A stretch of 64,000 nucleotides of DNA from Dyella tabacisoli (lineage in GTDB: Bacteria > Pseudomonadota > Gammaproteobacteria > Xanthomonadales > Rhodanobacteraceae). The DNA is taken from contig NZ_KZ857183.1 in NCBI RefSeq assembly GCF_003350925.1, positions 1 to 64,000 on the forward strand. Reading direction: 5' to 3'. Positions 1 to 61,266 of this stretch are shown in pieces. Numbering within the stretch: position 1 is the stretch's first letter; every line of letters begins with the position of its first letter. The position numbers and the translations under genes were made by a program. The notes below the pieces were generated by a model. The model did no database searches. It was given only the letters and a program-made list of their open reading frames with translations, and was not told the origin of the DNA.

Positions 1-1
1 A

Positions 2-70: not shown

Positions 71-187
71 AATCTATTAGCCAACGATTTAGTTAGCACG
101 GCGCAGCAAGAGTACAAATTAAATGAGCCGAGCGATGGAAAGCGAACCGCATGCTGACGTCGGCTAAAGGCAGAGGGAGCTCCTACA

Positions 188-1695
188 ATGAAGATCCAAT
201 CTGTTCGCATTAAGAACTTCCGTGCGTTGAAGGACGTGACAATCACTTTCGATTCTGTCACGACATTCATCGGGCCAAACGGCGCTGGCAAGTCCACTGT
301 GCTTCGTGCACTCGACTGGTACTTCAACGGCAAGCTTGGTTCTCTCACAGAGAAGGACTGCTCCTTCGGAGTGACTGACGAAGACATCGAGGTTCGGGTC
401 ACATTCGCTGACCTTACGGAAAAGGATCGAAATGAGCTTGGCAAATACGCGCCGACAGGAGTCACCACCTTCACTGCTTGGAAGCGGCGCGGTCACGACG
501 GGTCTGAAAGTCTATCCGCGAACTCGAAAAGTTACGCGCCATTCAATGCCATTCGAGGAAAGGGATCGGCTGCTGATAAGAAGACGGCGTACAACGATTT
601 GCGGAACTCCGATTCGTCGCTTGGCCTTCCAGCTTGGAGCAATGTAGATGCCGCTAACCAAGCTATGACGACATGGGAGGCGTCGCATACCTCCAGGCCC
701 AGACGTTTGCGAAGGTGCTCCGCTCGCTCGCTGAGGACACCGGCAAGCGCATTCAGGTGACTTATGCAACCCATAGCCCATATTTCCTTGAGGCGCGGCA
801 TTTTGACCAAGTCAGGCGACTGACGAGATCGTCTGAGGAAACCCCCGTTGTCTCTGTCCACCTTGCAACCGTTGCCGACGTAAAAGCTAGGTTGCAGGGA
901 GTAATGAGCACCGATACGGTTGATCGTCAGCTCGACGGTGTAGTTACGAATCAGCTTGCGGTAGCGCTTTTCGCGAATCGGGCTTTCCTTGTGGAAGGTA
1001 CGACAGAGTCATCGGTGTTCTACGGTATTGGCGATAAAACCTCTTTCGGCTCTCTTGAGGCTTCCGGCCTCTCAATAGTTCCCGTAGGAGGCAAGACATC
1101 GATCCCTCTCGCACACGCGATCCTTGTGTCGATCGGTATTCCGGTTTATGCACTCTTCGACGCGGATAGTGGGTTTGAAGCGCGTGCAAAGGCTAAGGGG
1201 AAGACACAAGACAAGATCGATGCTGAACAGAATTCCCATGTGGCAGCAAATCGTGCGTTGTTGAAATATTTCGGTCGAACCGTAGAAGACTTTCCGACTG
1301 CCATCGTTGCTGATGCCGTGGCCATCTTTGAGGATTGTCTCGAAGAGTTGCTTTCGGCAAATTGGCCCGAATGGATCACGGCCTGCAACAATGTCGAAGC
1401 GGCCGCAGGAATCAGTCTTGCAAAGAATCAACTCGCGTACCGCACCGCAACTCTTGAGGCCTCGGGAACGATTCCCGAGATGCTCTCGCAAATTCTCAGA
1501 AAAGCGGTAGGGGGGGTAACTCTGCGGCACACCACCCTAGCTGCCTGGTTGGTGGTGCACCGGGCAGCGCGCGCTCCCGATGGCAACGTGCGAGTCCGAA
1601 ATGCTCTCACGACGGATGCACGCCGTTCGGTCCATCACGCACGCTGCCGCTCCTCGATGAATCGCATTTCAGGAAGCGGATCGTTCTGTGTTTGA
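188..1695 (+). pseudogene. OLD-family ATP-dependent endonuclease, internally deleted and frameshifted
   Basis: The first part (188 to about 690) is an ABC/OLD ATPase N-terminus: the strand-helix start IKNFRALKDV, then a Walker A GPNGAGKST near residue 35. The second part, in another frame (about 673-1510), carries the post-Walker-B region QAQTFAKVLRSLA, the H-loop THSPYFLE and a TOPRIM-like start FLVEGTTES with a later DAD motif (ALFDADSG). The expected middle, including the ABC signature and Walker B, is missing, so the two halves look joined by an internal deletion with loss of frame. After LSQILRKA (about 1505) the sequence stops looking like this family, so the C-terminus is also replaced. 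OLD nucleases act in phage defence (known for the class, including GajA of Gabija). This copy should be inactive. It is convergent with the SIR2 gene and overlaps its 3' end. Confidence 0.75.
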
Positions 1696-5477: not shown

Positions 5478-5760
5478 GCCTTCCCCCTTCTAGGCACTAA
5501 TCCGGCAGGTCCTAATTAGTGCGCGTCTTTCACTGATTACGTTGCAGGTTGGTACTGATCGGGTCGCGACGTGCACCGAACCCGTATTGTCGATTACTTA
5601 CCGTACATCGTGAGACCCTTGCTGAAAGGAACGGCAGAAGCAGCTAGCGGCTTACTTAGATCAAACCCTCTAGCGTTTAACGGCGGCGATTGATGCTGCA
5701 CAGCAAGGATACGGGTCAATTCGAACCGTTTTACAGGCGGCAGCGAATGCGTTAGGTAAG

Positions 5761-8700: not shown

Positions 8701-9669
8701 CAGCACAACTTGAACCAATGTGGTCTTGCCTTTGCCAACCGTGCCAGTAACCAAAACAGATTTGCGTTGATTGATGAGACTGGTCAGTTGATCGCAAAGT
8801 GCACGACGCATCAATAATGGTGAGGGCACCGGCGGGACACTCCGCGCCAAAAGATTCAATAGATTTCGGCCGGGGTTATTTGCATCCAGTACGTGGGGGA
8901 GTTGCGCCGTGCCCAGCGCCAACAAGGGGTTGGTTGCCGCATCCACCAGCCGATGCAGGTCCCCTAAGGTCAGTCGACGTTGCTCTGCCTCGTTCCGAAT
9001 CACCACCTCCCAAAAATACGACTCCAGCCATTTGCAGACCGCCGTCGCCATGCCGGCCGAGCGTCGCTGGTTTCGCAACAACTCGCCAATTCGGTCGGTG
9101 ACGCTTTGCTTTACGGCGTCAATATCGGGACGATGGGTTAGCCATCGAAAACGCCGAATCAGATATTGCTGAACGTTATGCGCATCCGCCTGTGCAAGGA
9201 AGGCGCGTAGCTGGCTATCGGTAGGGAGCTTCGAAACCAAATATGTCGTAAGCTTCGCGGCAAGCTGCTCATTGGTTTGGGCGGTCGTCCATGCATCGAT
9301 ACCAGCGAGACCGTCAAAGTCAGCGTCTTGCTCCAGAGCGATCGTGCTCGTTGTCAGGTAGTGGTATTCAACGATTGTTGCAGGTGATCGGGATGCCAAA
9401 GACCAAAAATGTTCGAGCGCTGTTCTCGCCTTTTCAACACCTAGAGAAATGGGCGACGACGTCCTTCGGACCTGTACCGTCAGAACGCTTCCATTCTTGT
9501 GGATATCGAAGTCCTCAGCACCTTCAAGATAGATGACCTGATTGGCGTGCTCCAATCGAGTCCATGCTTCAATAGAACACCACGCTTGGTACACCGTTCC
9601 GCTAATTGAGTGAACGGCCTGACGTATCGCATCGGCTGGCAATGGCGCAGGAAGTCCGGCTACGTCCAT
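5761..9669 (-). CDS. STAND-type NTPase with putative DUF4297/Cap4-like N-terminal nuclease domain
   Basis: The 1302-residue product has three parts. Residues 20-75 (GTVYQAW, EGAEDFDI at 49-56, VQVRRT at 65-70) resemble the PD-(D/E)XK-like DUF4297/Cap4 nucleases, except that the usual Lys of the QVK motif is Arg68. A P-loop NTPase follows: Walker A TGTVGKGKTT near residue 308 and Walker B TVIILDDLN near residue 358. The C-terminal ~800 residues are helical and repeat-like, as in the target-sensing arms of STAND/Avs proteins. In such proteins recognition of a phage component drives oligomerisation and switches on the effector. The downstream SIR2 gene on the same strand suggests a two-effector or sensor-effector module. 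Alternatives are a regulator unrelated to defence, or a nuclease domain that is structural only because of the Lys-to-Arg change. Confidence 0.75.
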   Translation of the reverse strand: MDVAGLPAPLPADAIRQAVHSISGTVYQAWCSIEAWTRLEHANQVIYLEGAEDFDIHKNGSVLTVQVRRTSSPISLGVEKARTALEHFWSLASRSPATIVEYHYLTTSTIALEQDADFDGLAGIDAWTTAQTNEQLAAKLTTYLVSKLPTDSQLRAFLAQADAHNVQQYLIRRFRWLTHRPDIDAVKQSVTDRIGELLRNQRRSAGMATAVCKWLESYFWEVVIRNEAEQRRLTLGDLHRLVDAATNPLLALGTAQLPHVLDANNPGRNLLNLLARSVPPVPSPLLMRRALCDQLTSLINQRKSVLVTGTVGKGKTTLVQVVLGTLAASSQWVDLAEAEPVWEKLLFRELAAQMDDSNFPTVIILDDLNLSPGQQKAYGAALADLLRRAEATGRSIVLTAQGESSASVAQQRFTGVEIVDVLEISIEEAKALCIDHGCPDDVADLWSVLITAKTGGHPKLVQIMLDELVHRNWPLPQLSEMSSASQGIVSARQATRQLLSDTVSTSDAELLYHASTCLVLMHRSILIRLAELVGNNKNAGDVIDRFTGKWIECIEGEWYRTTALLSGSAKDVWSEEDQAKAHARLHTAIQHKSPLSPAEAGALLYHAYFSKDDWRLAHTALKLQTIDSKEARQEVEQRYLLWLPYLAIGSGQQIANNPYAAVILRGLQFKVATTLDADVVPSICDRWVEETNAVDVEALQPIVRAHMWLAVGLSECEKVPHSHRLQAATGLLTLQDEPKHIAEAMLATIFDKATGEPEFPTTATPTQFVLLNVARSVEGIAGIDTLLSWLNTTNDASRGQFEDVLGWPITQTLGAFVQATWSRHCESTKDWSPWIVALDRVDACAKRWGLHRLGREAAKAKAIILAEYLSDATTALTCLQQAEADFGPSGILLEQWANLCYHQHQDEKVLQIWLQLSQDGLADVFFDPFAARRAGISAGRLARWNDAQEIFYAAASRLGPDSMSRVRFGLMVDAALATSHTGNQVNAASLLAEAVVALPIEAAGEDDPQWEAVQRIAVEVCRLIEHRVGYAQARSQTVELGRASAPNVFALDANAGQQLRTELTQAQALRLAATLGIWPIGADTCLASLEESRHLLVQLPVSETRLSLAYARGAGEGFIPSLLQFYKSLHFMMIHRSEGPGYEIDATEWSRPVTLPDAWFGYLIAGVLCSGHALLSHLALWLTEANSHVGNEDPLSQAISRLLDGAARSSDGAQRTVRDAAEDGLVRLGASATWMLDRPNAAQLFELQQLAAYPLVSDFVRVRQELFNHHVAKTLAHAWQNHAASGQFQFVSPRTTVPALTH

Positions 9670-9974
9670 TGCCTGAGGGGGGCTGAAACATTTGACTAGC
9701 GTCTTTTTCGTGCATGGATCACCGCTTTGCCAACGTAAATTGATCTGCGTTAGCGTGAGATATCGCCTCTTTCAAGCGACATCAGACTAACAACGCGTTC
9801 TACTTGTCGCGACAAAAGTCCATCTGACGATCATTTTAAAGCCTTTGCACCACCTACTCTTCCATCGGGGGCATTGCGGCCTATGGAGCAAATGCTGCTT
9901 CGTCGACTTCGTGGCTTGCCACCTAAACTATTAGAAGGTGGGATTTCACTATTGAATCCCATGCGTCCTTGGAT
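9670..9974 (+). other. Intergenic stretch with one short possible coding sequence
   Basis: About 305 bases separate the STAND gene from the HEPN-like gene. An open frame on the plus strand (ATG at 9882, stop at 9999-10001, 39 codons) encodes an Arg/Leu/Pro-rich peptide and stays open upstream without a clear start, so it could be the tail of a lost gene. A weak inverted repeat, GGGATT (9940) with AATCCC (9955), could end transcription of the HEPN-like gene. Nothing else was recognised. Confidence 0.25.
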
Positions 9975-10703
9975 TCATCCGGCTATGGCACCCGGATAGA
10001 ACTGGATGCGTTCTCGATAAGCGTATTCGATTAAGTCTCTGATGAGCTCCAACAAACCACCCCATGGCCATCCCTCGATTGAATCACCGTGAGCCAAGCG
10101 GTTGCGAATCGTAGCTAGTACGATTGGCTCATCTGCTGCCAATTGTGAAGGGTCCTCAATCGCCTTCCTCGCATCCGCATTGCGCTTCAATCGAGCAGCC
10201 TCGGTTTCATAGAGAAACCGCACCGCAGGGGCCTGATATCGTTGGGCGAATGCTAGACGCTCGTCTGTCAATCCGTCTTCTTCTACAAGGTAAGACATAA
10301 GTTCTGCGAACATCGGAGGCTTAGCAAGCTTCAGCTTTTCCGTTGAGGATATTTTTACGAAATCTTTTCCTTGTTGTTTGACTTTGCATTTACGGAACTC
10401 GATCACTTTTCGCCCATAGCAGTCCAGGAGGGCGCCTTCTAACGCAGCCAAGGCAACGAGTTCGTAAGCTTTGCTGAAGTCGCTTTCGAGCCAGGTATAA
10501 GCACAGAGTTTCTGCGCACGCTCGTACTTTGAAGCGGTAGGAACTGGAATCGCAGCGTGGAGATCCAGCTCACGAAGGAATTCCAACCAGTCGGTTATCC
10601 GATGGAAGGAGTGGAGGTGAGCGGGATTCCCGGGTACTGGCCAAACTACTTGCAGCGGCGTGTTGCAAACTGGCCAGTGGGAAGTGTCAATCACCAGCGA
10701 CAT
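9975..10703 (-). CDS. Hypothetical protein with HEPN-like RNRLAHG motif
   Basis: I do not recognise a named family for this 242-residue, soluble, largely helical protein. Near the C-terminus it has TIRNRLAHGD, which fits the R-x4-H motif (usually RN...AH) of HEPN ribonuclease domains found in toxins, Abi proteins and CRISPR effectors. The preceding helices are rich in Glu, Arg and Lys, and no membrane segment is visible. It lies between the STAND NTPase and a GNAT acetyltransferase on the same strand, so a defence or toxin role is plausible. A non-catalytic HEPN-fold or a C-terminal 'RiboL/Apea-like' domain are alternatives. Existence as a gene is likely; the HEPN call rests on one motif. Confidence 0.6.
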   Translation of the reverse strand: MSLVIDTSHWPVCNTPLQVVWPVPGNPAHLHSFHRITDWLEFLRELDLHAAIPVPTASKYERAQKLCAYTWLESDFSKAYELVALAALEGALLDCYGRKVIEFRKCKVKQQGKDFVKISSTEKLKLAKPPMFAELMSYLVEEDGLTDERLAFAQRYQAPAVRFLYETEAARLKRNADARKAIEDPSQLAADEPIVLATIRNRLAHGDSIEGWPWGGLLELIRDLIEYAYRERIQFYPGAIAG

Positions 10704-10798
10704 CGTCCCATGTCCTCTATTGGTGGTGGATCAAACGGAATGCTTGGCGCGCACAGGTTTGCCCTTACAGTGGCGACCATCGGTATTACCAACGGCGG

Positions 10799-11305
10799 TT
10801 ACGTCATACTCAATCCTTGATTTCGCACAAACAATTGCAGGTATGCGTCCCTTCGCTGGGAGGCGTAGGACGTACCCACCGATTGAAATCCGAATTTTCG
10901 CAAGACAGCATGCATTGCTTCGTTAGTAGTGTTTGAGGTGGCATATATAGCTTCGCCCCTTGCCTGCTCAATTAAGCTTGCAACGAGCGAAACTGCGATT
11001 CCTCTGCCCCTAGCTTCTGGTCGCACGACGACCCATCCAAGTTCCAAATTAAAAGACTCTGCAGCCAGTAAGGCACAGGATTTTTCGAATACACCGTTGC
11101 GATAAGCGGTGTTGGGGCGTTTGAGCGCCGCTATCCCTTGAATTTGTGCCGCATGTCGCGCAATCGCAATTGAATGAGCCATTCCCATCAACCGTTCGAA
11201 CGACAACGCAGCCACCTCACCACCTTCGCGCGCGAGGGTGGTGAAAACCCTTCGGTCCGTGTCCGATAGTGCCGAAGGCACACAAATCTCTATGGAAGGA
11301 GTCAT
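10799..11305 (-). CDS. GNAT-family N-acetyltransferase
   Basis: This 168-residue protein carries the GNAT acetyl-CoA site: LGWVVVRPEARGRGIAVSLV around residues 90-110, matching the V-x-P-x-x-R-G-x-G pattern that binds the pyrophosphate of acetyl-CoA. A later ATSNTTNEAMHAVLRKFGF is the typical motif B region with the [FY]GF turn. It therefore transfers an acetyl group to an amine; the substrate cannot be told from the sequence. The start ATG has an AAGGG ribosome site. It is 95 bases upstream of the HEPN-like gene on the same strand. A GNAT near a HEPN-type protein might act as a toxin or antitoxin modifier, but nothing here proves that link. Confidence 0.8.
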   Translation of the reverse strand: MTPSIEICVPSALSDTDRRVFTTLAREGGEVAALSFERLMGMAHSIAIARHAAQIQGIAALKRPNTAYRNGVFEKSCALLAAESFNLELGWVVVRPEARGRGIAVSLVASLIEQARGEAIYATSNTTNEAMHAVLRKFGFQSVGTSYASQRRDAYLQLFVRNQGLSMT

Positions 11306-12209
11306 AACGCCCTTGGGTGCCTTGAGAGACTATTTTGAGGGTATTTGTCCTCCGCCCGATGCCCCTACCCCATATTGGCGACTAGGTACGCTGAAGCAAT
11401 ACCGTTAGGCGCCGCCTTTTGACCAGGGAAAAGCGATGAAATGTTGCGATAAGGGCTGCCAGGGCATCCTTATTGGCGAAAAAGTAAGCAATCGGCGGAT
11501 CAAGTACTTCACGGAGCTTGGCTAAGATGCTGGTATCGGGGCCTGCTCCAGGTCAAAAGCATATTTTCGCTATACCTGCGATAACACCGGCTAATCAGCA
11601 GGTCCGTGTTCGACATGCATTAGCAGCTGTCGCTCGCGCGCGCTGCCTTTATCTCATATGCCGTCAGATTTGCTATCGATGTGGCCGTGTACAACCGCGA
11701 CAGCTCCCTTCGGTATCGTGGATATGCGCATTGATCGCTATTTTCAAACGGATGTATATCAGGAGTGTGCGTACTGCCCCCTGCTGGTGAAAGGCCGCCG
11801 CCTCGGTGTTTGCTACCCACTTCGAAAGTGCGACATGACCCCTGACCACTACGCCGCCGTGTATGCCGAAGAAACTCGAAGAACTTTTGTCCTCATCTCC
11901 GAGGCCATTGGCAATTTCGTACTCACAATAGAGTGCCAGGGCGGCGGGTGTATACCTTTGTCCCGGCACACTTCAACTCCTTGTGGCCCAATTTTTCCTT
12001 CTCCGGGCGCACTCCCGAAAGGAGATATGCACTGAAAGCAGGCACTTTATTGCTTTCGCTTAGTCTGCCTTGCTCTCAAAGGAAAAACCGTCGAGAGCAA
12101 TCGAGCTAAGCGGCAGCGACCGATAGGACACCATGGTTACCCCTGATGGTTACCCAAAGTGCTTATATAGACTCCTCATTCGATAAGACTGCACTCTGCC
12201 CCTGTTTCT
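11306..12209. other. About 900 bases without a convincing gene
   Basis: A Cys-rich 29-codon plus-strand frame (11436-11525, beginning MKCCDKGCQGILIG) ends at TAA. The same frame continues after the stop with a second Cys-containing segment (YTCDNTG) to another TAA near 11595, so this may be a small zinc-ribbon-like gene interrupted by a nonsense mutation. A plus-strand frame at 11658-12035 and a minus-strand frame at 11673-11969 lie on top of each other and neither resembles a known family. I treat the stretch as decayed DNA between the GNAT gene and the 3' end of the phosphoesterase. Confidence 0.3.
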
Positions 12210-15200
12210 TCACGCGGGATCTGAGCATAACTGGTACAGCGCCCACGACGTGGCCACACCCGGCGTATGGGAGCAGCCGATCGAGTCCGGCTTGCAGCCG
12301 ACTGCGCCCGAGGTGCCTTCCAGCTGCTGCGAACAATTGGCCCCATCCACCTTGGCAAGATTCGCGGGGAGCTCGTTGCCCAGGCACACGTACACTACCC
12401 CTCCTGCCCGCTGCCCTTCTGGAACGGTCAAAGCCATGTATTTGAAGGTGCTACCGAAATGGGTTCGGACGGTATCGCCGATGCTCGTCAGGTCCCAGTG
12501 CGGAAATACAATGTCGGGCCGGTATGCCTGCACGAAGTAGTAGCCGTCGGGAATATCGACGCCTGGCGTCGAATAGCAACCTAGGTGCGACGCTGGCTTG
12601 TTCTGGGTCCGATACAACTTGTAACGGCGGTCCGACAGATTGTTGTTGTCTCCATCCTCAATGATGAAGAGCGTGTCCGCTGCGCCGCCGGTGCTCGACA
12701 CGGTGCCGGGTCCATAGTAGGTGTCTTCATATTCGAAAGGACAGAACAGGATCTGTATCCCCATCGCCGACGCTTCGCTCTGCCCGGGATAGCACATGAC
12801 CCAACTGCGGGCGCCCACGTCGAACTCGCTGGGTGCGGACACGATGGACAAGGATCGGGTCCCGTTGCCCATGGACAGATACCCTTCCGTCGTTCCCGAC
12901 TTGAAGTAGATCGTGTGGTCCTGCCGCGAATACGTCAGCATCGCGGTGCTCTCCGCAGCACCTCCCCTGTGCCGCGGCATGTTGACGCCCCCGAGGGTCA
13001 CGACATCGAGGATGTCGTTGCCCATTGTCAGCAGCTGGTACTTACCCGAGGGCAACTCGATCGCGGCGACACGCGCCGGATCGACACGTCCGTCGGACAC
13101 GAGGCCGAAGAGCTGGAACTGGGACTGGTGAGGCCAGGAACGGGCGTCGTGGACGACGTTCATCGGCCGGCTTTGCGAGCGGGGTGGGGGCGGCGGCGTG
13201 ACCGTGTTGGTCATCGCGCCCTTTCTCTCCGGGAAAGAATCATTGGAGTAGAACAGCCCGAGGGCGGTCCTGCCGTCCGCCTTCGCCGCCCCCGCCCAGG
13301 GAAGATCGGACGGATTGACCGTCCAGCCCTCGTTGGTGTGCAGCGGCGGGTTCTGCAACACGTTCGGATAAGTAGGGTGGTTGTTGTCCGTCACAGAGAC
13401 GTCGCCGGTCGCGATGTAATGGCCCGGTGGCAAGGACCAATACACCTGCAGCTTCTTTTCTTCCTTGTTGTACTTGAAGACCGTGTTCGTGCCCGGGCGC
13501 GCCGGCTTCAGCCATCCATAGTTCGAAATATTCTCGAATTGGCTGCACTCGATCGGCTGCCATGACGTATTGAAGAACTTGTACAAGCCCGTGGGAAGGT
13601 TGCGCGATTCTGGAGAGGTGTCGGTACTGACTCGCAGCGCATAGAAGGTCTGCAAGTCGTCGGCAACAGGTGGGATTCCACCGGCTATCACATACAAACG
13701 GTTGTCATCCCCGCCGGTCGAGGTGAGCGGCCCATCCGCGGCCCCCGACTTGCGGCCGGCCGGGCTGTACAGGATTCGCAAATGATTCCGTCCGTCGGCC
13801 GGCCCCGTGATCACCCAGGACTTCCATTGGAAGTCCTGCAGTGTCGACGTGTCGTCGGTCATCAGGACGTAATAGCGTCCGTGGTCCTGGTGCGTGGGCA
13901 CGAAGAGGTACGGACCGGTTGCGGCCGGGTCCGTGGAATCGACTAGCCGGATGGTGTGCTGGATCGCGTCGTAGCGCACGTACTTGGGAGCGGAATTATC
14001 GCCCCAGCGCAGTTGATTGCCGGACGCGATGATCGCACTCCAGTAGCGATTGAAGAAGCAGTAGAGGCCGGAAGGCAGGTGATTCAGCGGGTTGTCGATC
14101 AACGGGGTTCCGCGGGACGTGTACGACAAGGTCGCATCCGGCACGGTGCAGTTCGCGAGCGTGCGCGCCCCGCCGGCCTCGATCCTCACCATTCGGCCGG
14201 TCACCGTCAGAATCGCCTGCAGCGGTCCCGCATCGCAGGAGATCGTGAACGGCTTCGAGAAGGTGGTGGAGATCGGTGCAAACTGCGGCGGCAGGAAATC
14301 GGGGCTCGAAACCGCGGGGAGCGCGAGCGACTTCGAGCTGAATCCCTTCAGGCTGACGTCGATGGAGTGGACCGTTGAGATCGCGCGCACGTAAGCGGAT
14401 GTCGTGCCGTCCGGTTTGAACTCGCCCACGAAGACGTCGGAGATCCCCGGCTTCGTTTCCCACGGAAATGGCGAATCCATGTAGGACGGACTCAGCGAGG
14501 CGAGTTCCCGTGCCGTGATGCAATCCGTGCGCGGAACTCCCTCGATGAACACCTTGGCCCCTGCGCGATCCTTGCCATCCTTGAAATTCTGACTGGCGCG
14601 AATCCGATCCAGGTCCCCCGAGCGCCCGACGCCTGAGTTCATGCGGTCGAGATTGAGATTCAGGCGATCGGCGACTTCCTTGATGAGGCTCGCGTGGTCA
14701 TGCCACACGGAATCGACGGACCCCTTGCGAACCCAGGGACTGATCAGCAGGCAGGGAACACGCACACCGAATTGATCGTACTTGAACGGCGGGGCGACGT
14801 CGGGCTCCCGGAAACTGGTCGCACCCGGCTTGGGAGGAACGACGGGGCGAGCACCCGTCAACGGGTCCTCGTCCCCTTTCTTCGGAGGCGCCACGTGGTC
14901 GTACAAGCCGCCATGTTCGTCGAAAGTGACGATGAGCAGGCTGCGCTTCCACAGCTCCTCGTTGCCGCGAATCGCTCCGTAGATTTCCGATATGAAGTGC
15001 TCGGCATTTGCCATCGAATGGTACGGATGCGCGTCCTGCGCGTGCAATCCCGCATACGTCGGTTCCACCCATAGGAATTTCGGCAGGCGCGGCGTGATCG
15101 GTGACGGCGGATTGGGGCTGTAGCCCCTGCACTCCGCTTTGAAGTCATCGATGGTGCCGTGGTTCGTGATGGTGTCGTCGTCGACTGCTTCGGAAAATAC

Positions 15201-16046
15201 TTCCGAGAACGACCCGAAGGAGCCGTTGGTGTAAACCCGCCACTGCTCGAGATTCGTGAACAGGTCGAAGACGGACGTCTTTTCGAACCCGGTACTCTGC
15301 TTGATAATCCAAGACGTGTCGGGTTGTGAGAGCCAGCCGTCGGAACTACCCAGCAAGGCGAAGAGGCGATTTGGCCACGTCGGACCGGGGATGGAGGCGA
15401 AGTAGCGATCGCAGACGCAGAATTCTTCCGCCAGCTTGTGGAACACCTTCAGCGAGCCGTAGGGGTAGTAGCTCATGGCCTGATGGCGGCGCAGCACGTC
15501 GTTGTTTTTCAGCCAGACATCCGGCGCTCCGCACAGGCTGGTGCTGTCGATGGAGCAGCCACCGTTGTAATCGAATTTGTGATCCGAAAACAAGGAGACC
15601 GTTTTCCGCAGCGCGACCGCTTTCTTCATAAGCACGTTGGCGGCAGCGCCTGGAGTCTCGCTCGGCAGACCCAGATCCTCCAGGTCCGACTTCACCACCG
15701 AATTGACGAATCCGACCTTGGACTGTCCCTGGATGCCCAGGCTTTGCGTCACGTGGTAGTAGCTGTGCGGGTAGTCGCCAATGGTCAGGTAGTCCAGCAC
15801 CAACGGCAGTTGCCTCACCGAGCTGGCCGTGGGCTCGTTCGGAGCCAGGTTACGACCCTCCCTGTCCTTGAACAGGTGGCTGTCCGTTTCCATGTTGCTG
15901 GAACTTACGGACGAATCCGCTGGGAGCCACGGTAGGGATCCGAGCAAATGATCGAAAGAACGATTCTCCAGCATTACAATGAATACATGCTGGATCTCGA
16001 CGGATTCGCTGGCAGGGTTGGAGGCGGAACTTGCATCTTCTGACAT
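12210..16046 (-). CDS. Phosphoesterase (phospholipase C / AcpA-like) with repeated C-terminal region
   Basis: Residues 18-520 form an alkaline-phosphatase-superfamily phosphoesterase of the bacterial phospholipase C/acid phosphatase group. Signs are HVFIVMLENRSFDHLLG (20-36) at the metal site, later TFDEHGGLYDHVAPP and VPCLLISPWVRKG, and VWHDHASL near the end of the domain. The family hydrolyses phosphate mono- or diesters such as phospholipids. The rest, about 650-1278, is unusual: four imperfect units of roughly 165 residues, each opening with an [LI]P-x-G-x-Y motif (about 656, 815, 997 and 1163), some ending in an ILYSP- or ILFCP-like strand. They may be beta-rich binding modules. No signal peptide, Tat motif or membrane helix is visible at the N-terminus, so export is unclear. 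AAAGGAG sits 6 bases before the ATG. A broken ChW-type gene lies just upstream on the same strand. Confidence 0.85.
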   Translation of the reverse strand: MSEDASSASNPASESVEIQHVFIVMLENRSFDHLLGSLPWLPADSSVSSSNMETDSHLFKDREGRNLAPNEPTASSVRQLPLVLDYLTIGDYPHSYYHVTQSLGIQGQSKVGFVNSVVKSDLEDLGLPSETPGAAANVLMKKAVALRKTVSLFSDHKFDYNGGCSIDSTSLCGAPDVWLKNNDVLRRHQAMSYYPYGSLKVFHKLAEEFCVCDRYFASIPGPTWPNRLFALLGSSDGWLSQPDTSWIIKQSTGFEKTSVFDLFTNLEQWRVYTNGSFGSFSEVFSEAVDDDTITNHGTIDDFKAECRGYSPNPPSPITPRLPKFLWVEPTYAGLHAQDAHPYHSMANAEHFISEIYGAIRGNEELWKRSLLIVTFDEHGGLYDHVAPPKKGDEDPLTGARPVVPPKPGATSFREPDVAPPFKYDQFGVRVPCLLISPWVRKGSVDSVWHDHASLIKEVADRLNLNLDRMNSGVGRSGDLDRIRASQNFKDGKDRAGAKVFIEGVPRTDCITARELASLSPSYMDSPFPWETKPGISDVFVGEFKPDGTTSAYVRAISTVHSIDVSLKGFSSKSLALPAVSSPDFLPPQFAPISTTFSKPFTISCDAGPLQAILTVTGRMVRIEAGGARTLANCTVPDATLSYTSRGTPLIDNPLNHLPSGLYCFFNRYWSAIIASGNQLRWGDNSAPKYVRYDAIQHTIRLVDSTDPAATGPYLFVPTHQDHGRYYVLMTDDTSTLQDFQWKSWVITGPADGRNHLRILYSPAGRKSGAADGPLTSTGGDDNRLYVIAGGIPPVADDLQTFYALRVSTDTSPESRNLPTGLYKFFNTSWQPIECSQFENISNYGWLKPARPGTNTVFKYNKEEKKLQVYWSLPPGHYIATGDVSVTDNNHPTYPNVLQNPPLHTNEGWTVNPSDLPWAGAAKADGRTALGLFYSNDSFPERKGAMTNTVTPPPPPRSQSRPMNVVHDARSWPHQSQFQLFGLVSDGRVDPARVAAIELPSGKYQLLTMGNDILDVVTLGGVNMPRHRGGAAESTAMLTYSRQDHTIYFKSGTTEGYLSMGNGTRSLSIVSAPSEFDVGARSWVMCYPGQSEASAMGIQILFCPFEYEDTYYGPGTVSSTGGAADTLFIIEDGDNNNLSDRRYKLYRTQNKPASHLGCYSTPGVDIPDGYYFVQAYRPDIVFPHWDLTSIGDTVRTHFGSTFKYMALTVPEGQRAGGVVYVCLGNELPANLAKVDGANCSQQLEGTSGAVGCKPDSIGCSHTPGVATSWALYQLCSDPA

Positions 16047-53580: not shown

Positions 53581-53652
53581 TACGCGCCGGCTTGGTCGGG
53601 TTCCAACCCGCCCGCATGGGTGTCAGACAGGCAGTTGCCAGGAGGAAAGATA

Positions 53653-54207
53653 GTGGCGTTTGCAAAATATGTTGAAAAATTGCGGCTGATTTATTCCAGT
53701 CATGATGCGCAGCTCAATCTTGCCAAGGGCAATACGGAAACGGCGCTGGCCAAAGCGGAAGTTCGGCTTGGCTTCTCACTGGATCCTGGCTTGCGTGCAG
53801 CTTGGCGCATCGCCGACGGCAGTGAACATGAGGTGCGTGTTTTTCTGAGGCCGGGCTTTCTGACTGGATATGACTTCCTGTCTTTGGTCTCAGCCGAAAA
53901 GGCCCGCGCCCGCATGGAGCGCGTGTCGCCTCAATATGTGGACTATGTCGAACCTTCGCCCCGCGACCGCCGCATCCGTGACGGCTGGTATCAGAGCGGA
54001 TGGCTTCCATTTGCCGCCTTTGGCGGCAACTCGCTGACATTGATACAAGACTACGCCCCCGCCGACGGAGGGAAAGTGGGGCAGATCATCGCCTTCACCC
54101 ACGATCCGGACGAGATCAGCTATGTGGCGCCGGACTTCTCGACGTTCCTCCGGCTTTCACTGAACGCGATCAAGGATGACCCCGAAGAGTTCCTCGAAAT
54201 ATTCTGA
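53653..54207 (+). CDS. SMI1/KNR4-family protein
   Basis: Starting at GTG 53653, preceded by GGAGGA at 7 bases (a GTG at 53620 lacks such a site), the product is 184 residues. It has the SMI1/KNR4 pattern: EVRLGFSLDPGLRAAWRIAD with a later GYDFLSLVSAEKAR, WYQSGWLPFAAFGGNSLTLI and GKVGQIIAFTHDPDEISYVA. This superfamily is known mostly as immunity proteins of polymorphic toxins. No toxin gene with a recognisable nuclease or deaminase domain is next to it; the preceding LRR-like gene is the only close partner. Confidence 0.8.
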   Translation: MAFAKYVEKLRLIYSSHDAQLNLAKGNTETALAKAEVRLGFSLDPGLRAAWRIADGSEHEVRVFLRPGFLTGYDFLSLVSAEKARARMERVSPQYVDYVEPSPRDRRIRDGWYQSGWLPFAAFGGNSLTLIQDYAPADGGKVGQIIAFTHDPDEISYVAPDFSTFLRLSLNAIKDDPEEFLEIF

Positions 54208-55872: not shown

Positions 55873-56041
55873 ATGGTTCACTGTAGGCCACCCATGGGTG
55901 GTTTGCAAGCGGAAGCCCTTTCCTGCTGTGGCGTCGCCCAATGGCCATCTTTAAACGGACAGCTTAAGGCGCCTGTCCCGCTTTGCGTCTGGGCATGCGC
56001 TATGCTCCAGCGAACCGATTAGCATTCCAGTCATCTGAGTC

Positions 56042-56722
56042 ATGCGCGCTTTAGTTGTTGAGGATCAGGCACCTGTCAGGAATGCCATCGCGAAACGGCT
56101 CCGCGCTTCAGGGCATGCGGTTGATGAGGCGGCTGATGGCGCCACCGCCGAATCGTTTATCCAGTCATATACCTACGACGTGTTGGTCCTGGACCGGCTC
56201 CTGCCCGATGGCGATGCACTGCTTCGCCTGAAGGGCTGGCGAGACCGAGGAGTGACCACGCCTGCTCTGTTCCTGACCGCTTTCGATCGGGTGGCCGATC
56301 GGCTGAGTGGCTTCGAGGCTGGGGCCGATGACTATCTGGTCAAACCGTTCGACATGGAAGAGTTGCTTGCTCGCCTTGCCGCGATAGCGCGTCGTGGATC
56401 AGTCATCAGGCCTAGCACTATTCGTATTGCCGACCTCGAGGTTGATATCGGGCGTCGTGAAGTTCGGCGCGCCGGCATTGCCCTCCCTCTGCGCAACAAG
56501 GAGTTTGTCGCCCTGCAGTTGTTGGCGGAGCGTGCTGGAAAGGTCGTGTCGCGCGATGAACTGATCGCCGGGTGTTGGGGTGAGGAGCATCTGCCGGCGT
56601 CCAATGCCGAAGAAGTTATCATTGCGTCGTTGCGCAGAAAACTGGGCGGGCCGCCGCTGCTTCACACGGTGCGCGGGGCTGGATACATCCTTGAGGCGCC
56701 CGATGGCAAAGCGTCGTCATAA
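56042..56722 (+). CDS. OmpR/PhoB-type response regulator
   Basis: The 226-residue protein has a receiver domain with VVEDQ (acidic pocket), the phosphorylated Asp in VLVLDRLLPDG and Lys in YLVKPF, then an OmpR-type winged helix with IADLEVDIGRREVRRAGIAL, EFVALQLLAERAGKVVSRDE and VIIASLRRKLGGPPLLHTVR, RGAGYIL. The kinase gene starts inside its last 20 bases, so the pair is coupled. The target genes are not identified; the exported agmatine-deiminase genes downstream are candidates by position only. Confidence 0.92.
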   Translation: MRALVVEDQAPVRNAIAKRLRASGHAVDEAADGATAESFIQSYTYDVLVLDRLLPDGDALLRLKGWRDRGVTTPALFLTAFDRVADRLSGFEAGADDYLVKPFDMEELLARLAAIARRGSVIRPSTIRIADLEVDIGRREVRRAGIALPLRNKEFVALQLLAERAGKVVSRDELIAGCWGEEHLPASNAEEVIIASLRRKLGGPPLLHTVRGAGYILEAPDGKASS

Positions 56723-57944
56723 CGCCATCCACCAGCGTCTGTATCTGAAGCTCACCGTGAGCTGGGCTGTCGCGTGGATCGTGGGCATCGCGTGCCTGGG
56801 CACGTTGGCCATAAGCATGAACGGTCGGCTTGGGCGCGTCGGGCTCGAAGACATGCTGCGGCTGCGGGCGACGGCTGTTTATGGGCTGAGCTGGTTTGAT
56901 GCACAAGGCCGCTTTCACGACGAACTCCTCGATAAAGAGCCTGGCCTGCTCACTGGCGGCGTCGATATCTGGGTTATCTCGCAACGATCGCCAGATACCG
57001 TCCTGTTAAGGCCCAAACAGGCCATATTCAACATCCACTCTCCGGCCGAGCTGGCGAATGCCAATGCGGGCAGCGAGGACGGCGCGATCCGCGAGGGGCG
57101 CGACAGCTTGGGCGTCTCTTATTTGTCTTTGACCAAAACCACCTACGACGACGCCGATCGCGTTGTGGCGAGGATCCTCGTGCTGGGCGATCCCAGGGCG
57201 ATCGATGCGGCACATGCCGTCTTTACGCGCAATCTCCTGCTTGCAGTGACCGCGCTTGCCCTGCTCGGCCTCGCGGTCGGCACCCTGTTGGCTCGCCAGA
57301 CCCTACGCCCTGTTGCGGAGACCATGGATATCCGTGAGCGCTTGATCGCGGCGGCGGCCCACGAACTTCGTGCACCGGTGGCTAACCTACTCGCCATCTG
57401 CGATTCGGTGGGTTACGGAGATATCCCGCTGGAGGAAGGTTTTACGCAGGTTCGTCATGTGGCACGAACAAGTGCGACGTTGATCGACAAGCTGCTGCTT
57501 CTGGCGCAGCTCGACTCGTCGGCCGCCGGGGTCATGAAGGAAAAAGTCCGCCTTGACCTGATCGTAGAAGCGGCGCTTCCAGAGGGGCATGGCATCACCA
57601 CGGACATGGAGGAGTCCGTGGTCGTTGCAGACCGGCGCCTCCTGCAAATCGCGGTGCGCAATCTGATCGAGAACGCGTTGACCCATGGACGTAGCAACGG
57701 CGACACCGGCGCTTCGGTACGCATAACAGTGCGCCATCACACGGTCACGATTGAAGATGATGGCGCCGGCTTTCGGATGGATCAGTTGGCGAGTGCGCGG
57801 GAGGCTTTTCGCAAGGCACCGGGGAGCCCGGGTTACGGTCTTGGCTTATCCATCGTGCAACACATTGCCGAACTTCATGGTGGCCAGCTAATTCTCGAGA
57901 ACCTCGCGCCGCACGGCGCCAGAGTGCGCCTGCAGATCAACTGA
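56703..57944 (+). CDS. Membrane sensor histidine kinase
   Basis: The 413-residue protein (ATG 56703) has an N-terminal TM helix (LTVSWAVAWIVGIACLGTLA), a periplasmic domain of ~125 residues, and a second TM (LLLAVTALALLGLAVGTLLA). The H box AAAHELRAPVANLLAICDS has the phosphorylated His, followed by N box LQIAVRNLIENALTHG, G1 IEDDGAGF and G2 GSPGYGLGLSIV. A classic HAMP is not obvious; the linker is short. It phosphorylates the response regulator that overlaps it. Confidence 0.92.
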   Translation: MAKRRHNAIHQRLYLKLTVSWAVAWIVGIACLGTLAISMNGRLGRVGLEDMLRLRATAVYGLSWFDAQGRFHDELLDKEPGLLTGGVDIWVISQRSPDTVLLRPKQAIFNIHSPAELANANAGSEDGAIREGRDSLGVSYLSLTKTTYDDADRVVARILVLGDPRAIDAAHAVFTRNLLLAVTALALLGLAVGTLLARQTLRPVAETMDIRERLIAAAAHELRAPVANLLAICDSVGYGDIPLEEGFTQVRHVARTSATLIDKLLLLAQLDSSAAGVMKEKVRLDLIVEAALPEGHGITTDMEESVVVADRRLLQIAVRNLIENALTHGRSNGDTGASVRITVRHHTVTIEDDGAGFRMDQLASAREAFRKAPGSPGYGLGLSIVQHIAELHGGQLILENLAPHGARVRLQIN

Positions 57945-58163
57945 AGGCTGGGCTGGAAGCCCCCCACAAATATTCATTGTTCGTCTTGCCTGCCCTTCCT
58001 GAGAAGGGCGCTGGATGCAGGGCGGGTCAGCTATTGGCGATGCCACATGAGGTGGCCCGCTGTGCCGGAAAGCAAAGCCGAGGTGTCAGCTCGATATCAG
58101 GTTGGCCTCGTATGGTGCCAGCCGAACCCTTTATGCGCCCTGCGCGCACCCCGAGGTCACGCC

Positions 58164-59282
58164 ATGTCACATCGCGATACGAAACGCCTTGCCACCCGCC
58201 GCCCGGCTTTGCTTCTGGCCGCCATTGCACTTCTCAGCACCGCTTGTGCTGGTGCCCAAACCACGATGCCGCACGAGAATGTGCGCCATGAAGGCACGTG
58301 GCTGCAGTGGCCGCATTCCTATACCTATGGGTCCACCTACAGGGACCGCATCGAGTCGACCTGGATCGAAATGACGCGCTCCCTGGTGAGCGGCGAAAAG
58401 GTCCACATTGTCGCCTACAGCGCCAGTGAGCAGGAGCGCATTCAAAATCTGCTGGCTGAAGCCGACATCCCGCTCACCAACGTGACCTTCGTGGTTCAGC
58501 CAACAGACGACGTGTGGGTTCGCGACAATGGCCCGGTTTTCGTTTATGGCCCTGACCATGCCATGGCTATTCAAAGCTGGGGCTTCAATGGCTGGGGCGG
58601 GAAACAGCCGTACCACTTGAGCGCGGAAGTCCCTGCTGTGGTCGCAAGAGAGCTCAATATGTCGAAGGTCGACCTCAGCAACTATGTTGTTGAAGGCGGT
58701 GCCGTGGAAACCGATGGGCGCGGCACTTTTCTGGCCACGCGCAGTTCTATTCTCAACCCCAACCGTAATCCGGATGTGACCGAAGATCAGATGGATGCGG
58801 TGCTTGCCGCCAACCTGGGTGTTTCAAACTTCATCTGGTTGGACGGTGTTCGGAATGCCGACATCACGGATATGCATATCGACGGCTTTGCGCGATTTGC
58901 AACCAGCGACACCATTGCCACGATGAGTCCGGCCGACCTCAATGACTGGGGCCTTTCTTCCACCGACATCCAGCGACTTTACGCCGCTAAAGATGCCAAT
59001 GGTACGCCGTACAAATTCGTTCAATTTCCGCTCACGGAAAACAACGTGGTGACGAGCTACGGTAAGGACCTCGGATACAAGGGCTCGTATGTCAACTTCT
59101 ATGTCGGCAATTCGGTCGTGCTGATGCCAACGTATAACGACGCGAACGACGCCGTCGCCAAAGCGGCGCTTCAGCGGGTTTTCCCGGATCGCGTGGTGGT
59201 TGGAATCGATGTGCGAAATCTCTACGCCAATGGCGGCATGATCCATTGCGTCACTCAGCAGCAGCCTGAGGGCAGCTTCTGA
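58164..59282 (+). CDS. Exported agmatine deiminase family protein
   Basis: Starting at ATG 58164, the product is 372 residues with a signal peptide (RPALLLAAIALLSTACAGA; STAC could be a lipobox). The catalytic set of the agmatine deiminase/peptidylarginine-deiminase (PPAD-like) family is present: VWVRDNGPVFV, VVEGGAVETDGRGTF, HIDGFARF and the nucleophile Cys in GGMIHCVTQQQPEG. It hydrolyses a guanidine group (agmatine or Arg) to a ureido group plus ammonia, here in the periplasm or outside. A second, longer homologue follows in the same direction. Confidence 0.88.
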   Translation: MSHRDTKRLATRRPALLLAAIALLSTACAGAQTTMPHENVRHEGTWLQWPHSYTYGSTYRDRIESTWIEMTRSLVSGEKVHIVAYSASEQERIQNLLAEADIPLTNVTFVVQPTDDVWVRDNGPVFVYGPDHAMAIQSWGFNGWGGKQPYHLSAEVPAVVARELNMSKVDLSNYVVEGGAVETDGRGTFLATRSSILNPNRNPDVTEDQMDAVLAANLGVSNFIWLDGVRNADITDMHIDGFARFATSDTIATMSPADLNDWGLSSTDIQRLYAAKDANGTPYKFVQFPLTENNVVTSYGKDLGYKGSYVNFYVGNSVVLMPTYNDANDAVAKAALQRVFPDRVVVGIDVRNLYANGGMIHCVTQQQPEGSF

Positions 59283-59431
59283 CGAGGCTTTCGTGTTTCG
59301 GTCGTACGCCCTATGGGCTGGCCAACCCTTCTTGATGCGTTCGTGCATCGATTACCTTGATCGCGTCAGCGGACTTACGCATAGCCATGTCGACTGCGTA
59401 GTCCGCTAACGCTTTACCTAATGCAACGATC

Positions 59432-61252
59432 ATGAAATTGACGAGACGTAAGTTTATTGAGGCATCGATGACAGCCGGTGCTTTTCTCTTGGTCGCTCCC
59501 TTGTCAGGGTGCGGCGGGGATGGCGGCGGTGGCGAAGACGCCGCCGCGAGCGGCAACACGCCTGTGAATCCGGGGGTGCCTACTTCCGTGACCCTCAAAG
59601 TCCCCAGCGAAGGTGCGGAGCACGCGGCGACATGGATGGCGTTTGGCGCCACGGTGTCCGCCTGGGGTGACGATGCCACCATGGTGGCGGCCAACCGGAA
59701 CGGGTCGACAGACCTGCCTCTAACCCGAGCCATGGCGCGCGAAGACCTTATTCGTATCGCGGCGCAACTGTCGCGCTTCGAGTGGGTCAACATGCTTGTC
59801 GACACGTCCAGGAGCGTGAACCTCAACCGCGGCGATCAGGACCTGGTCGATGCGAACGCGCACGTGGCCCGCATGGTTGCCGGCGTCGGCGAAAAGAACA
59901 TTATCCAGTTCACTTCAACGCCGATCAGCGCTTTGACAACGCAGTCGCCCTATCAGACAACTGCCAACGGAGTGCCTGGTGGACGAATCCTGGTCGCCTC
60001 CCCTACGACCGGCCCGGATGCCGGTAAGCCGTTGCCTGCCATTCGATCTGATCGGGTCAGCTTTGCACGGCAGCCGATCAATGACCTGTGGGTTCGGGAT
60101 ACCGCGCCCGTCTTCGCCAAGGGCTCGGATGGCCGGACCTACGGTATCAACTTCAATTTCAACGGATGGGGCCAGGGCTTTGGCCCGAACAATGACGGGC
60201 TGGCACCGTCGGCCAACAATCTCAACGGTCTTCGTCAGGCCACCGGCCTGGCTTCGCTCTTTCGATACGACACCGTCAAGATGGGACCCTTCAATACAAC
60301 CAACGGCCTGGGTGGCGTTGAGTTCCAGGTCATTGATGGCGACATGGACGTTGCGCGCTCGATCATCGAGCGCACCGGGGCAGCCCCGATGTCCACGTGG
60401 CTTACGATGGAGGGAGGCGGCGTAGAGTTGAGCGGCAACGGGCTGGCCATCGTTGCCAAGAGCTGCGTGATAAACAACAACCGCAACCCATCCAAGACGG
60501 TTACAGAGATAGAGGGCGAATTCAATCGACTGCTCGGCGTTCGCAAGGTCTATTGGGTTCCCGGTGTCAGGGGGTCCGAAATTACCGATGGCCACGCCGA
60601 CTTTTACATGCGGTTCCCGGCAGCCGAAGCATCAGCCTTTGCGACGGTGATCCTGGCCACATGGGATGGCGGCAAGGTCAACGACAATGACCGGCAGCCT
60701 ACATCGGTTGATGCCCTGAACTTGTCCGCCTTGCTGGCCAGCCTGCCGGGCGGCGCGTCCCCGCAGACGACGGCTCAAGAAAATCTGACCTATTTCGGCT
60801 CGGCCGGACCGGTGGTGAAGGTATGGCAACCGATGCCTGCGGGGGTACCCACGGCCGTAGTCACATTGGGCTCGCTGACCATCAATCAGATTCCCATCAG
60901 CGATCTCCCCGCGCTCTTGCGGCAGCGCGATCAGATCAACATCGTTCTGCTGCCGACGCCGGACCTCAGCAAGGTCAAGTCGACGGTCAATGTGCGATCA
61001 ACGGGTATCAACAACGCGCTGGTGACATACAGGCAAAGCTTTGAAATCACGTTCGCCGCCGGCTACGTTGGCTACTATGAGGCGAACCGGTGCGTAGTCA
61101 TGTCGCAGTTCGGCGATCCGACGAATGATCTGCTCGCGTTTCAGATCGTCCAGGCCATCTACCCTGAGCGTTACATCATTCAGATAACCACGGACGGCAT
61201 TGCTAACGGCGGCGGCACAATACATTGCGCGACACAGCAGCAAATCATCTGA
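59432..61252 (+). CDS. Long exported agmatine-deiminase-like protein (Tat/lipoprotein signal)
   Basis: The 606-residue protein starts with LTRRKFIEASMTAGAFLLVA (twin-Arg) and LSGC (lipobox) then a Gly-rich linker, so it is an exported lipoprotein. The deiminase core has LWVRDTAPVFA, WLTMEGGGVELSGNG, EITDGHADFYMRF and GGGTIHCATQQQI at the very end. Compared with the upstream homologue it has ~200 extra residues, mainly between residues 390 and 540, including a beta-rich insert. All catalytic residues seem kept. It probably deiminates a larger substrate such as peptides or polyamine conjugates. The two copies suggest a duplicated guanidine-degrading function. Confidence 0.88.
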   Translation: MKLTRRKFIEASMTAGAFLLVAPLSGCGGDGGGGEDAAASGNTPVNPGVPTSVTLKVPSEGAEHAATWMAFGATVSAWGDDATMVAANRNGSTDLPLTRAMAREDLIRIAAQLSRFEWVNMLVDTSRSVNLNRGDQDLVDANAHVARMVAGVGEKNIIQFTSTPISALTTQSPYQTTANGVPGGRILVASPTTGPDAGKPLPAIRSDRVSFARQPINDLWVRDTAPVFAKGSDGRTYGINFNFNGWGQGFGPNNDGLAPSANNLNGLRQATGLASLFRYDTVKMGPFNTTNGLGGVEFQVIDGDMDVARSIIERTGAAPMSTWLTMEGGGVELSGNGLAIVAKSCVINNNRNPSKTVTEIEGEFNRLLGVRKVYWVPGVRGSEITDGHADFYMRFPAAEASAFATVILATWDGGKVNDNDRQPTSVDALNLSALLASLPGGASPQTTAQENLTYFGSAGPVVKVWQPMPAGVPTAVVTLGSLTINQIPISDLPALLRQRDQINIVLLPTPDLSKVKSTVNVRSTGINNALVTYRQSFEITFAAGYVGYYEANRCVVMSQFGDPTNDLLAFQIVQAIYPERYIIQITTDGIANGGGTIHCATQQQII

Positions 61253-61266
61253 TGTAAGGCGTGTTT

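What the first reader, a model, noticed from the sequence alone, without database searches (positions are those of the whole stretch)
58164..61252. Two consecutive exported agmatine-deiminase-type enzymes of different size
Most agmatine deiminases are cytoplasmic. Here both have export signals and all catalytic motifs; the second is a Tat/lipoprotein-like form with a ~200-residue insertion. Function outside the cytoplasm may concern peptidyl-Arg modification or guanidine scavenging.
Basis: partly seen in the sequence, partly recalled or inferred. Interest (0 to 1): 0.5.

Follow-up and report, generated by a model that had tools for sequence, protein, structure and literature searches.

The report
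Sensor-linked pair of exported guanidine deiminases
Two neighbouring genes encode enzymes of the agmatine-deiminase family that carry export signals, they travel with their own two-component sensor system, and one of them has a remodelled active site, which points to a controlled way of treating guanidine-bearing amines outside the cytoplasm.

Summary
D1 (58164-59282, 372 aa, Sec-type signal) and D2 (59432-61252, 606 aa, Tat lipoprotein signal) are both PF04371 proteins. Two details are wrong. D2's extra ~220 residues are three separate insertions. D2 also has Gly547 where the PPAD paper reports an Asn strictly conserved in citrullinating members. Export in itself is not new: Agu2A' of P. aeruginosa, a known Tat substrate, falls in the same clade.

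New, as far as I could search: (1) D1 belongs with an upstream OmpR-type regulator and histidine kinase (56042-57944). In two genome sets D1 and the kinase occur in exactly the same genomes (9 of 63; 4 of 197), and Thiolinea has the same regulator-kinase-D1-D2-like order. (2) The residue that holds agmatine's terminal amine in a plant enzyme is Ile in D1 and D2, and PPAD's carboxylate-binding arginines are absent. (3) In exported relatives, Gly at the Asn site always comes with Ser/Thr three before the catalytic Cys (14 of 14 rows, against 0 of 95 with Asn), on few independent origins.

Best reading: a two-component-controlled periplasmic deiminase module for agmatine-like amines. No activity was tested. 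Peptidyl-arginine modification is not supported.

The parts
56042..56722 (+). OmpR-type response regulator
   Evidence: PF00072 73.6 bits and PF00486 62.3 bits; linked to D1 in relatives
56703..57944 (+). sensor histidine kinase, overlaps the regulator's 3' end by about 20 bases
   Evidence: PF02518; present in exactly the D1-bearing genomes of two sets
58164..59282 (+). D1, Sec-type exported PF04371 deiminase, 372 aa
   Evidence: PF04371 307.5 bits; model pLDDT 88.2; Z 42.7 to 1xkn
58164..58256 (+). D1 signal peptide, residues 1-31, likely cut AGA|Q
   Evidence: sequence; same type in five of five aligned D1-type proteins; no signal predictor was available
59432..61252 (+). D2, Tat-type lipoprotein of PF04371, 606 aa
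   Evidence: PF04371 192.3 bits; model pLDDT 69.6, pTM 0.77; Z 38.4 to 1xkn
59432..59509 (+). D2 Tat signal with lipobox LSG|C, residues 1-26
   Evidence: TRRKF at residue 4 and LSGC at 24, same in three orthologues
59666..60046 (+). D2 insertion site 1 (about +86 residues before the WxRD motif)
   Evidence: segment lengths against the median of Asn-bearing rows; limits approximate
60173..60325 (+). D2 insertion site 2 (about +49 residues after NFNGWG)
   Evidence: low confidence in the model; limits approximate
60629..61036 (+). D2 insertion site 3 (about +86 residues between HxD and the Asn/Gly site)
   Evidence: strands and helices at 461-527 in the model; limits approximate
61070..61072 (+). 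codon of Gly547, at the place of the catalytic Asn (PPAD N297)
   Evidence: PMC4487231 section 8
61217..61219 (+). codon of Thr596, the Ser/Thr that accompanies Gly547
   Evidence: complete association in 109 rows
55966..61257 (.). 5.3 kb block (regulator-kinase-D1-D2) shared with D. subtropica and, with gaps, D. silvatica, between unlike flanks
   Evidence: blastn; boundaries read

Best explanation
Regulator, kinase, D1 and D2 form one unit. The kinase (sensor part outside the inner membrane, inferred) detects an envelope signal, perhaps a guanidine-bearing amine such as agmatine, and through the OmpR-type regulator switches on the two enzymes. D1 is exported by Sec as a soluble periplasmic hydrolase that cuts ammonia from the guanidino group of agmatine or a close relative, by the usual Cys-His-Asn chemistry of the family, giving a carbamoyl (ureido) amine that can be taken up and used. 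D2 leaves by Tat as a folded lipoprotein on a membrane facing the periplasm; it is a sister enzyme with enlarged loops and a changed active site (Gly for Asn, Thr near the Cys) that acts on a different guanidino compound or works by a modified mechanism. Shown: family, fold match, signal patterns, conserved unit, co-occurrence. Inferred: actual export, regulation of D1/D2 by the kinase, substrate, benefit, D2's chemistry.
For: Fold and family. Export tracks a clade: 99 of 114 rows with an aliphatic residue four before the catalytic His carry a signal pattern, 0 of 30 with an acidic residue (a stricter first rule gave 63 of 114 and 0 of 30). Unit: regulator-kinase-D1 linkage in relatives; D1 in 9 of 63 genomes of one order and the kinase in the same 9 of 63; D1 in 4 of 197 genomes of the own family and the kinase in the same 4; of 12 other D1 genomes tested 11 hold the kinase at E 1e-20, and in 10 of the 11 every such hit lies in a D1 locus. 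Small-amine substrate: two channel Trp, the guanidine-binding Asp and the MtAIH Asp89 equivalent kept in D1; PPAD arginines absent; in 8 of 80 named loci exported relatives sit with AguB and a solute-binding protein as in the P. aeruginosa operon; in four loci of the Thiothrix group the Tat deiminase is followed by a flavin amine oxidase.
Against: MtAIH Asp220, which contacts agmatine's terminal amine (PMC6447857 section 14), is Ile in D1 and D2, so agmatine itself may not be the substrate. Neither protein reaches the curated agmatine-deiminase cut-offs. No AguB, transporter or amine oxidase lies beside the window's pair; the own genome has no match to the Thiothrix-group amine oxidase at 1e-10; and that oxidase is seen in only 1 of the 80 named loci. 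In D. silvatica the regulator's start is lost and the kinase lacks 92 bases, which shifts its frame, while D1 and D2 are intact. The D1 genome G826 has no kinase at E 1e-20, and in G1026 it lies on another contig. No binding site of the regulator was shown or sought beyond a plain promoter scan.
Confidence: 0.57

Rival explanations
1. D1 and/or D2 are peptidyl- or protein-arginine deiminases like PPAD, modifying envelope or foreign proteins outside the cell.
For: Export signals, same Pfam family; PPAD structures match the models (Z 33.2 and 31.8 at best); D2's big loops could bind a large partner.
Against: PPAD R152/R154 fall on G143/G145 (D1) and G245/G247 (D2), at the same 21-residue spacing of the preceding Asn from the guanidine-binding Asp; agmatine deiminases and their kin match better (Z 36.6-42.7 and 34.4-38.4; the top row, 1xkn, is itself only a putative, untested enzyme); polyamine-type neighbours in some relatives.
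Confidence: 0.1
2. D2 is not a deiminase but a catalytically dead or ligand-binding sister that holds the guanidine compound and passes the signal to the kinase or steadies D1.
For: Gly547 replaces the Asn whose Ala mutant is inactive in PPAD (PMC4487231 section 6); insertions that fall near the active-site lids by alignment; kinase linked to the pair.
Against: Asp, His, Asp and Cys are all kept, and Gly with Ser/Thr is kept in a whole clade, also in loci whose fetched flanks hold no such kinase (kinase in 4 of 80 named loci); D1 with the kinase exists without a D2-like neighbour in G048, G070 and G1029.
Confidence: 0.25
3. Both are ordinary agmatine deiminases that happen to be exported, as Agu2A'; the residue differences have no bearing on function.
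For: Agu2A' has the same Ile at the -4 site and its operon is said to respond to environmental agmatine (PMC4211729, passages).
Against: Agu2A' falls in another subclade (with the own C5 paralogue); D2's loss of Asn; [quoted passage not shown]
Confidence: 0.3

Closest known systems
Agu2A' of Pseudomonas aeruginosa PA14 (PA14_48450, agu2ABCA' operon)
   Same: Exported clade, Ile four before the catalytic His, listed as an experimentally identified Tat substrate (PMC6085387, passages); the plasmid copy read here begins with the published signal sequence.
   Different: Soluble Tat protein in a deiminase-AguB-binding-protein operon; no two-component genes among the 20 features shown around it; 373 aa, Asn kept. 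Its closest relative in the window's genome is the C5 paralogue (L002), not D1 or D2.
Cytoplasmic agmatine deiminase AguA / plant AIH (TIGR03380, MtAIH 6NIB/6NIC)
   Same: Fold, guanidine-binding Asp, His, Cys, channel Trp residues.
   Different: Export signal; Ile for Asp220; below the curated cut-offs; D2 lacks the Asn. The genome has its own signal-less AguA beside an ORF that I read as AguB.
Porphyromonas gingivalis PPAD
   Same: Superfamily fold, export, Cys/His/Asp residues.
   Different: No R152/R154 equivalents and no extra C-terminal domain in D1 or D2; lower structural match. PPAD's type IX export is recalled.
D2 clade: Nocardioides speluncae, Kribbella antibiotica, SAR324 and Pasteurellaceae proteins (L048-L051)
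   Same: Gly for Asn, G[ST]IHCATQQQ, insertions at the same three sites; one clade, SH-aLRT 100.
   Different: Insertions much smaller (about +69 to +99 residues in all, against +221).

Membership tests
PF04371 (PAD_porph) | score over Pfam's curated cut-off of 25 bits | tested here: met
   307.5 (D1) and 192.3 bits (D2)
Agmatine deiminase AguA (TIGR03380, NF010070) | score over NCBI's curated cut-offs 381.8 and 483 | tested here: not met
   187.5 and 211.6 (D1), 132 and 125.3 (D2)
Agmatine deiminase (MtAIH mode of binding) | acidic residue four before the catalytic His that holds the terminal amine (Asp220) | tested here: not met
   Ile234 in D1, Ile384 in D2; PMC6447857 section 14. That paper also says bacterial enzymes recognise the amine differently (passage), so this is not decisive
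Agmatine deiminase | conversion of agmatine to N-carbamoylputrescine | not testable with these tools
   needs an assay
Citrullinating guanidino-modifying enzymes (Cys-His-Asn), D1 | Asn equivalent to PPAD N297 | tested here: met
   Asn311, 51 residues before the Cys, as N306 to C357 in EfAgDI (N306 from PMC4487231 section 8; C357 recalled)
Citrullinating guanidino-modifying enzymes (Cys-His-Asn), D2 | Asn equivalent to PPAD N297 | tested here: not met
   Gly547, and Gly in three of three D2 orthologues
PPAD-type peptidylarginine deiminase | Arg152 and Arg154 binding the substrate carboxylate | tested here: not met
   G143/G145 and G245/G247 by motif and equal spacing; no residue-level alignment to PPAD was printed
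Tat lipoprotein (D2) | twin-arginine motif and lipobox | tested here: met
   TRRKF, LSGC in three orthologues; pattern only, export not shown
agu2ABCA'-type operon | AguB and solute-binding protein beside the exported deiminase | tested here: not met
   window neighbours are a two-component system and DUF1501/DUF1800 genes

The most novel reading that the evidence does not exclude
A dedicated periplasmic guanidine sense-and-quench module: a two-component system co-inherited with a Sec-exported deiminase, and a lipoprotein sister from a clade of penteins in which the catalytic Asn has been exchanged for Gly together with a new Ser/Thr near the nucleophile, so that either deimination runs without the Asn, the rule of the Cys-His-Asn triad being broken, or the sister acts as the ligand-holding partner of the kinase.
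Probability: 0.3. Interest if true: 0.7.

Novelty: new variant of a known kind. Interest (0 to 1): 0.52.

Why it matters
It defines a testable unit (sensor, regulator, two exported deiminases) for how bacteria may deal with guanidine-bearing amines outside the cytoplasm; the only exported relatives whose study my searches turned up are Agu2A' and PPAD. The D2 clade offers natural proteins in which a residue reported as strictly conserved in citrullinating enzymes has been exchanged, so that the need for that Asn can be tested directly.

Tried and rejected
Rejected: one long insertion in D2 (three sites); D1 as a lipoprotein (the Cys is not kept in G070); a decayed D2 gene (open in three genomes at 93-95% identity, with Gly and Ser/Thr kept clade-wide). 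My signal rule calls D1 'TAT' because of TRRPAL; I read it as Sec, since G048 and G070 lack that motif.

Led nowhere: promoter and terminator scan, no more sites than in shuffles; base composition, no contrast (block 59.7%, 5.3 kb stretches of the window 60.5 +/- 5.7); a DNA baseline with window 1-16000 gave one 62-base match in G039 and none in G001, so the baseline for transfer is the aguA/aguB region alone; the independent-pairs test of the Gly/Ser-Thr association has too few independent pairs (1 on supported branches, 3 on all). Papers: the listings of searches showed no report of a two-component system linked to exported deiminases or of Gly-type members; only open-licence PMC papers are searched, I saw listings and starts of abstracts, and most of these papers I did not open. 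Williams et al. 2010 on agu2ABCA' is not held; what I say of it comes from passages of papers that cite it and from recall. PDB families not listed are not excluded.

Dropped rows: 169 profile hits were cut to 150 by equal ends. Before the tree, 19 of 30 acidic-type rows and six broken, masked or duplicate rows were left out, 17 rows from wider contexts were added (142), and 17 near-identical rows were dropped (125). One script failed and was mended. The first signal rule was loosened once; both results are given. My notes gave 87 bases or 29 codons for the gap in the D. silvatica kinase; one search shows 92 bases.
Full report
What is there. The window comes from a Dyella-group genome of 5.07 Mb: G001, of the same genus code, has a contig of the length of one of Dyella silvatica RBB189, and G039 of one of Dyella subtropica RXD159. 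D1 spans 58164-59282 and D2 59432-61252 on the + strand. Both are PF04371 proteins. The genome holds two further members: an AguA without a signal, followed by an ORF that I read as AguB (C1, L001), and a standard-size Tat-type paralogue (C5, L002). Full-length D2 matches lie in 3 of 99 relatives searched, the own genome included, and at E 1e-30 in 1 of 398 genomes drawn from the phylum, the own one.

Export. D1 has a Sec-type signal with an AxA|Q end in five of five aligned D1-type proteins, one without any Cys near the cut. D2 has TRRKF and LSGC in three of three orthologues. No signal predictor was available, so I wrote a rule. In an alignment of 150 family rows from fetched loci, the residue four before the catalytic His is acidic in 30 rows, His in 4, aliphatic in 114, and Gly or X in 2. 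Signal patterns: 0 of 30 acidic, 0 of 4 His, 99 of 114 aliphatic; with the first, stricter rule 0 of 30, 0 of 4 and 63 of 114. Several of the 15 misses have an RR motif without an ATG start. The rows are not independent, and the 80 named loci are the best by likeness to D2 out of 507 confirmed in a capped scan. An exception outside this set is Agu2A of P. aeruginosa, which shows no signal and has Met at this place.

A known precedent. On a P. aeruginosa plasmid the order is deiminase, AguB, solute-binding protein, exported deiminase. The last protein begins with the signal printed for PA14_48450/Agu2A', listed there as an experimentally identified Tat substrate. On the tree it pairs with the own C5 paralogue, not with D1 or D2. 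So exported enzymes of this kind are known; for what follows I found no report in the listings of searches.

Tree. 125 rows, 330 columns, short search, SH-aLRT only. The exported rows form one side of a branch with support 98 (109 rows). D1-type proteins form a clade with support 100 on a long stem (10 rows). D2 groups with SAR324, Pasteurellaceae, Nocardioides and Kribbella proteins, support 100 (6 rows). The program warns of long branches meeting, also at D2, so finer placements are unsure.

The unit. DNA of the block 55966-61257 is 95.7% identical to D. subtropica over 5293 columns, and 92.6-92.7% to D. silvatica in two main pieces; the flanks on both sides differ. The aguA-aguB region of the same genomes is 80-84% (D. 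subtropica) and 85-86% (D. silvatica) identical. This suggests recent transfer of the block between species, on one baseline; base composition gives no sign of it. The block holds regulator, kinase, D1 and D2. Regulator-kinase-D1 without a D2-like neighbour occurs in G048, G070 and G1029; regulator-kinase-D1-D2-like in the same order in Thiolinea disciformis (L090); and D1 plus a Tat partner, with the two-component genes convergent or up to about 6 kb away, in Thiothrix and its kin. D1-type genes (E 1e-75) were found in 4 of 369 genomes of the class, 4 of 197 of the family and 9 of 63 of the order of G556. The kinase at E 1e-40 is in exactly the same 4 of 197 and the same 9 of 63. In 12 D1 genomes other than the three with the full block, 11 have the kinase at E 1e-20. 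In 10 of the 11 every such hit lies in a D1 locus: one hit each in nine genomes, and three pieces over two D1 loci in G1023. G1026 has its copy on another contig, and G826 has none. Shared ancestry makes these counts non-independent.

Damaged copies: in D. silvatica the regulator's start is lost, and 92 bases of the kinase are absent, which shifts its frame (the kinase match ends at residue 330). In G1023's second copy an ORF that looks transposase-like (by recall) lies between two kinase pieces. In G1028 only part of the kinase is seen and the Tat partner is broken.

Tandem exported pairs are common among the loci fetched. Of the 80 named loci, 18 in the listing hold two or three adjacent members, and L047 is the D. 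subtropica copy of the D1-D2 pair. In 11 of the 18 one member looks like a Tat lipoprotein and a neighbour like a soluble Tat protein. The two consecutive exported enzymes are therefore a recurrent arrangement.

Active sites. D1: D121, E177, H238, D240, N311, C362; D2: D223, E327, H388, D390, C599, with Gly547 for the Asn. The PPAD paper states that N297A is inactive and that the Asn is strictly conserved across citrullinating members, EfAgDI N306 among them, with human PAD6 as an exception (PMC4487231 sections 6 and 8). In 109 exported rows of the tree set, all 14 with Gly have Ser or Thr three before the Cys, and none of the 95 with Asn has. On the tree the change needs three steps at least, but only one contrast lies on well-supported branches, so the association is complete while its independent support is thin. 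Cytoplasmic-type rows combine Asn with Ser, so Ser alone does not mark the loss.

Substrate side. In MtAIH agmatine's terminal amine is held by Asp220, Ala360 and, through water, Asp89 (PMC6447857 section 14). Asp220 is Ile234 in D1 and Ile384 in D2; Asp89 is kept (D116, D218); the two channel tryptophans are kept (W118 and W144; W220 and W246). PPAD's R152 and R154 fall on Gly; PPAD N151 and the D1 and D2 Asn all lie 21 residues after the guanidine-binding Asp. D2's insertions 2 and 3 fall, by alignment, near the two flexible loops beside the MtAIH active site (around Cys132-Cys134, and 291-314; passages), which suggests altered access to the site; the model is weak at insertion 2 (pLDDT 38-46 over most of 247-297). 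VIA-align Z, D1: 42.7 to 1xkn (2.3 A, 336 residues), 36.6-41.4 to agmatine deiminases and their close kin, 33.2 at most to PPAD. D2: 38.4 (2.5 A, 341), 34.4-38.2 and 31.8 at most.

Neighbourhoods of relatives. AguB and the Agu2C-like binding protein lie in the same 8 of 80 named loci. A flavin amine oxidase (PF01593 in the two tested, with an RRKFL start in three copies read) follows the Tat deiminase in both copies of G1023, in G1033 and in L112, the last being the only one of the 80 named loci. The own genome has no match to it at 1e-10. These favour a small amine over a peptide, for relatives rather than for the window's pair itself.

Verdict. A new variant of a known kind: exported agmatine-deiminase-like enzymes bound to a two-component system, one with a natural exchange of a catalytic residue. 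The function is inferred, not shown.

Noticed in passing
L152:4710-6116, L148:5069-6463, L149:5444-6826, L112:6987-8378: Flavin amine oxidase ORF that overlaps the end of the exported deiminase gene in Thiothrix-group loci, with a Tat-like start in the three copies read.
   Followed up: partly
window 1-16000: One 62-base DNA match in G039 and none in G001: this end of the window looks like a variable region.
   Followed up: no
L038 (G001:C22:28000-46500): In the D. silvatica copy the regulator's start is lost and the kinase lacks 92 bases, with a shifted frame; D1 and D2 are open.
   Followed up: partly
window 53620-54207: SMI1/KNR4 (SUKH) family gene next to a 381-aa ORF without a Pfam match.
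   Followed up: no
L002:2766-3995: ORF beside the C5 paralogue whose sequence looks, by recall, like a DUF4157-type protein.
   Followed up: no
L059:7145-8665 and L061:7116-8651: Burkholderia and Paraburkholderia exported members of about 510 aa with another set of insertions and TDITNGHVD; Asn kept.
   Followed up: no
L057:2010-4724, L079:2143-4863: Phospholipase C-type gene with an RR start (PF04185 in L057; like start in L079) and a likely LysR-type gene (by recall) beside tandem exported deiminases.
   Followed up: no
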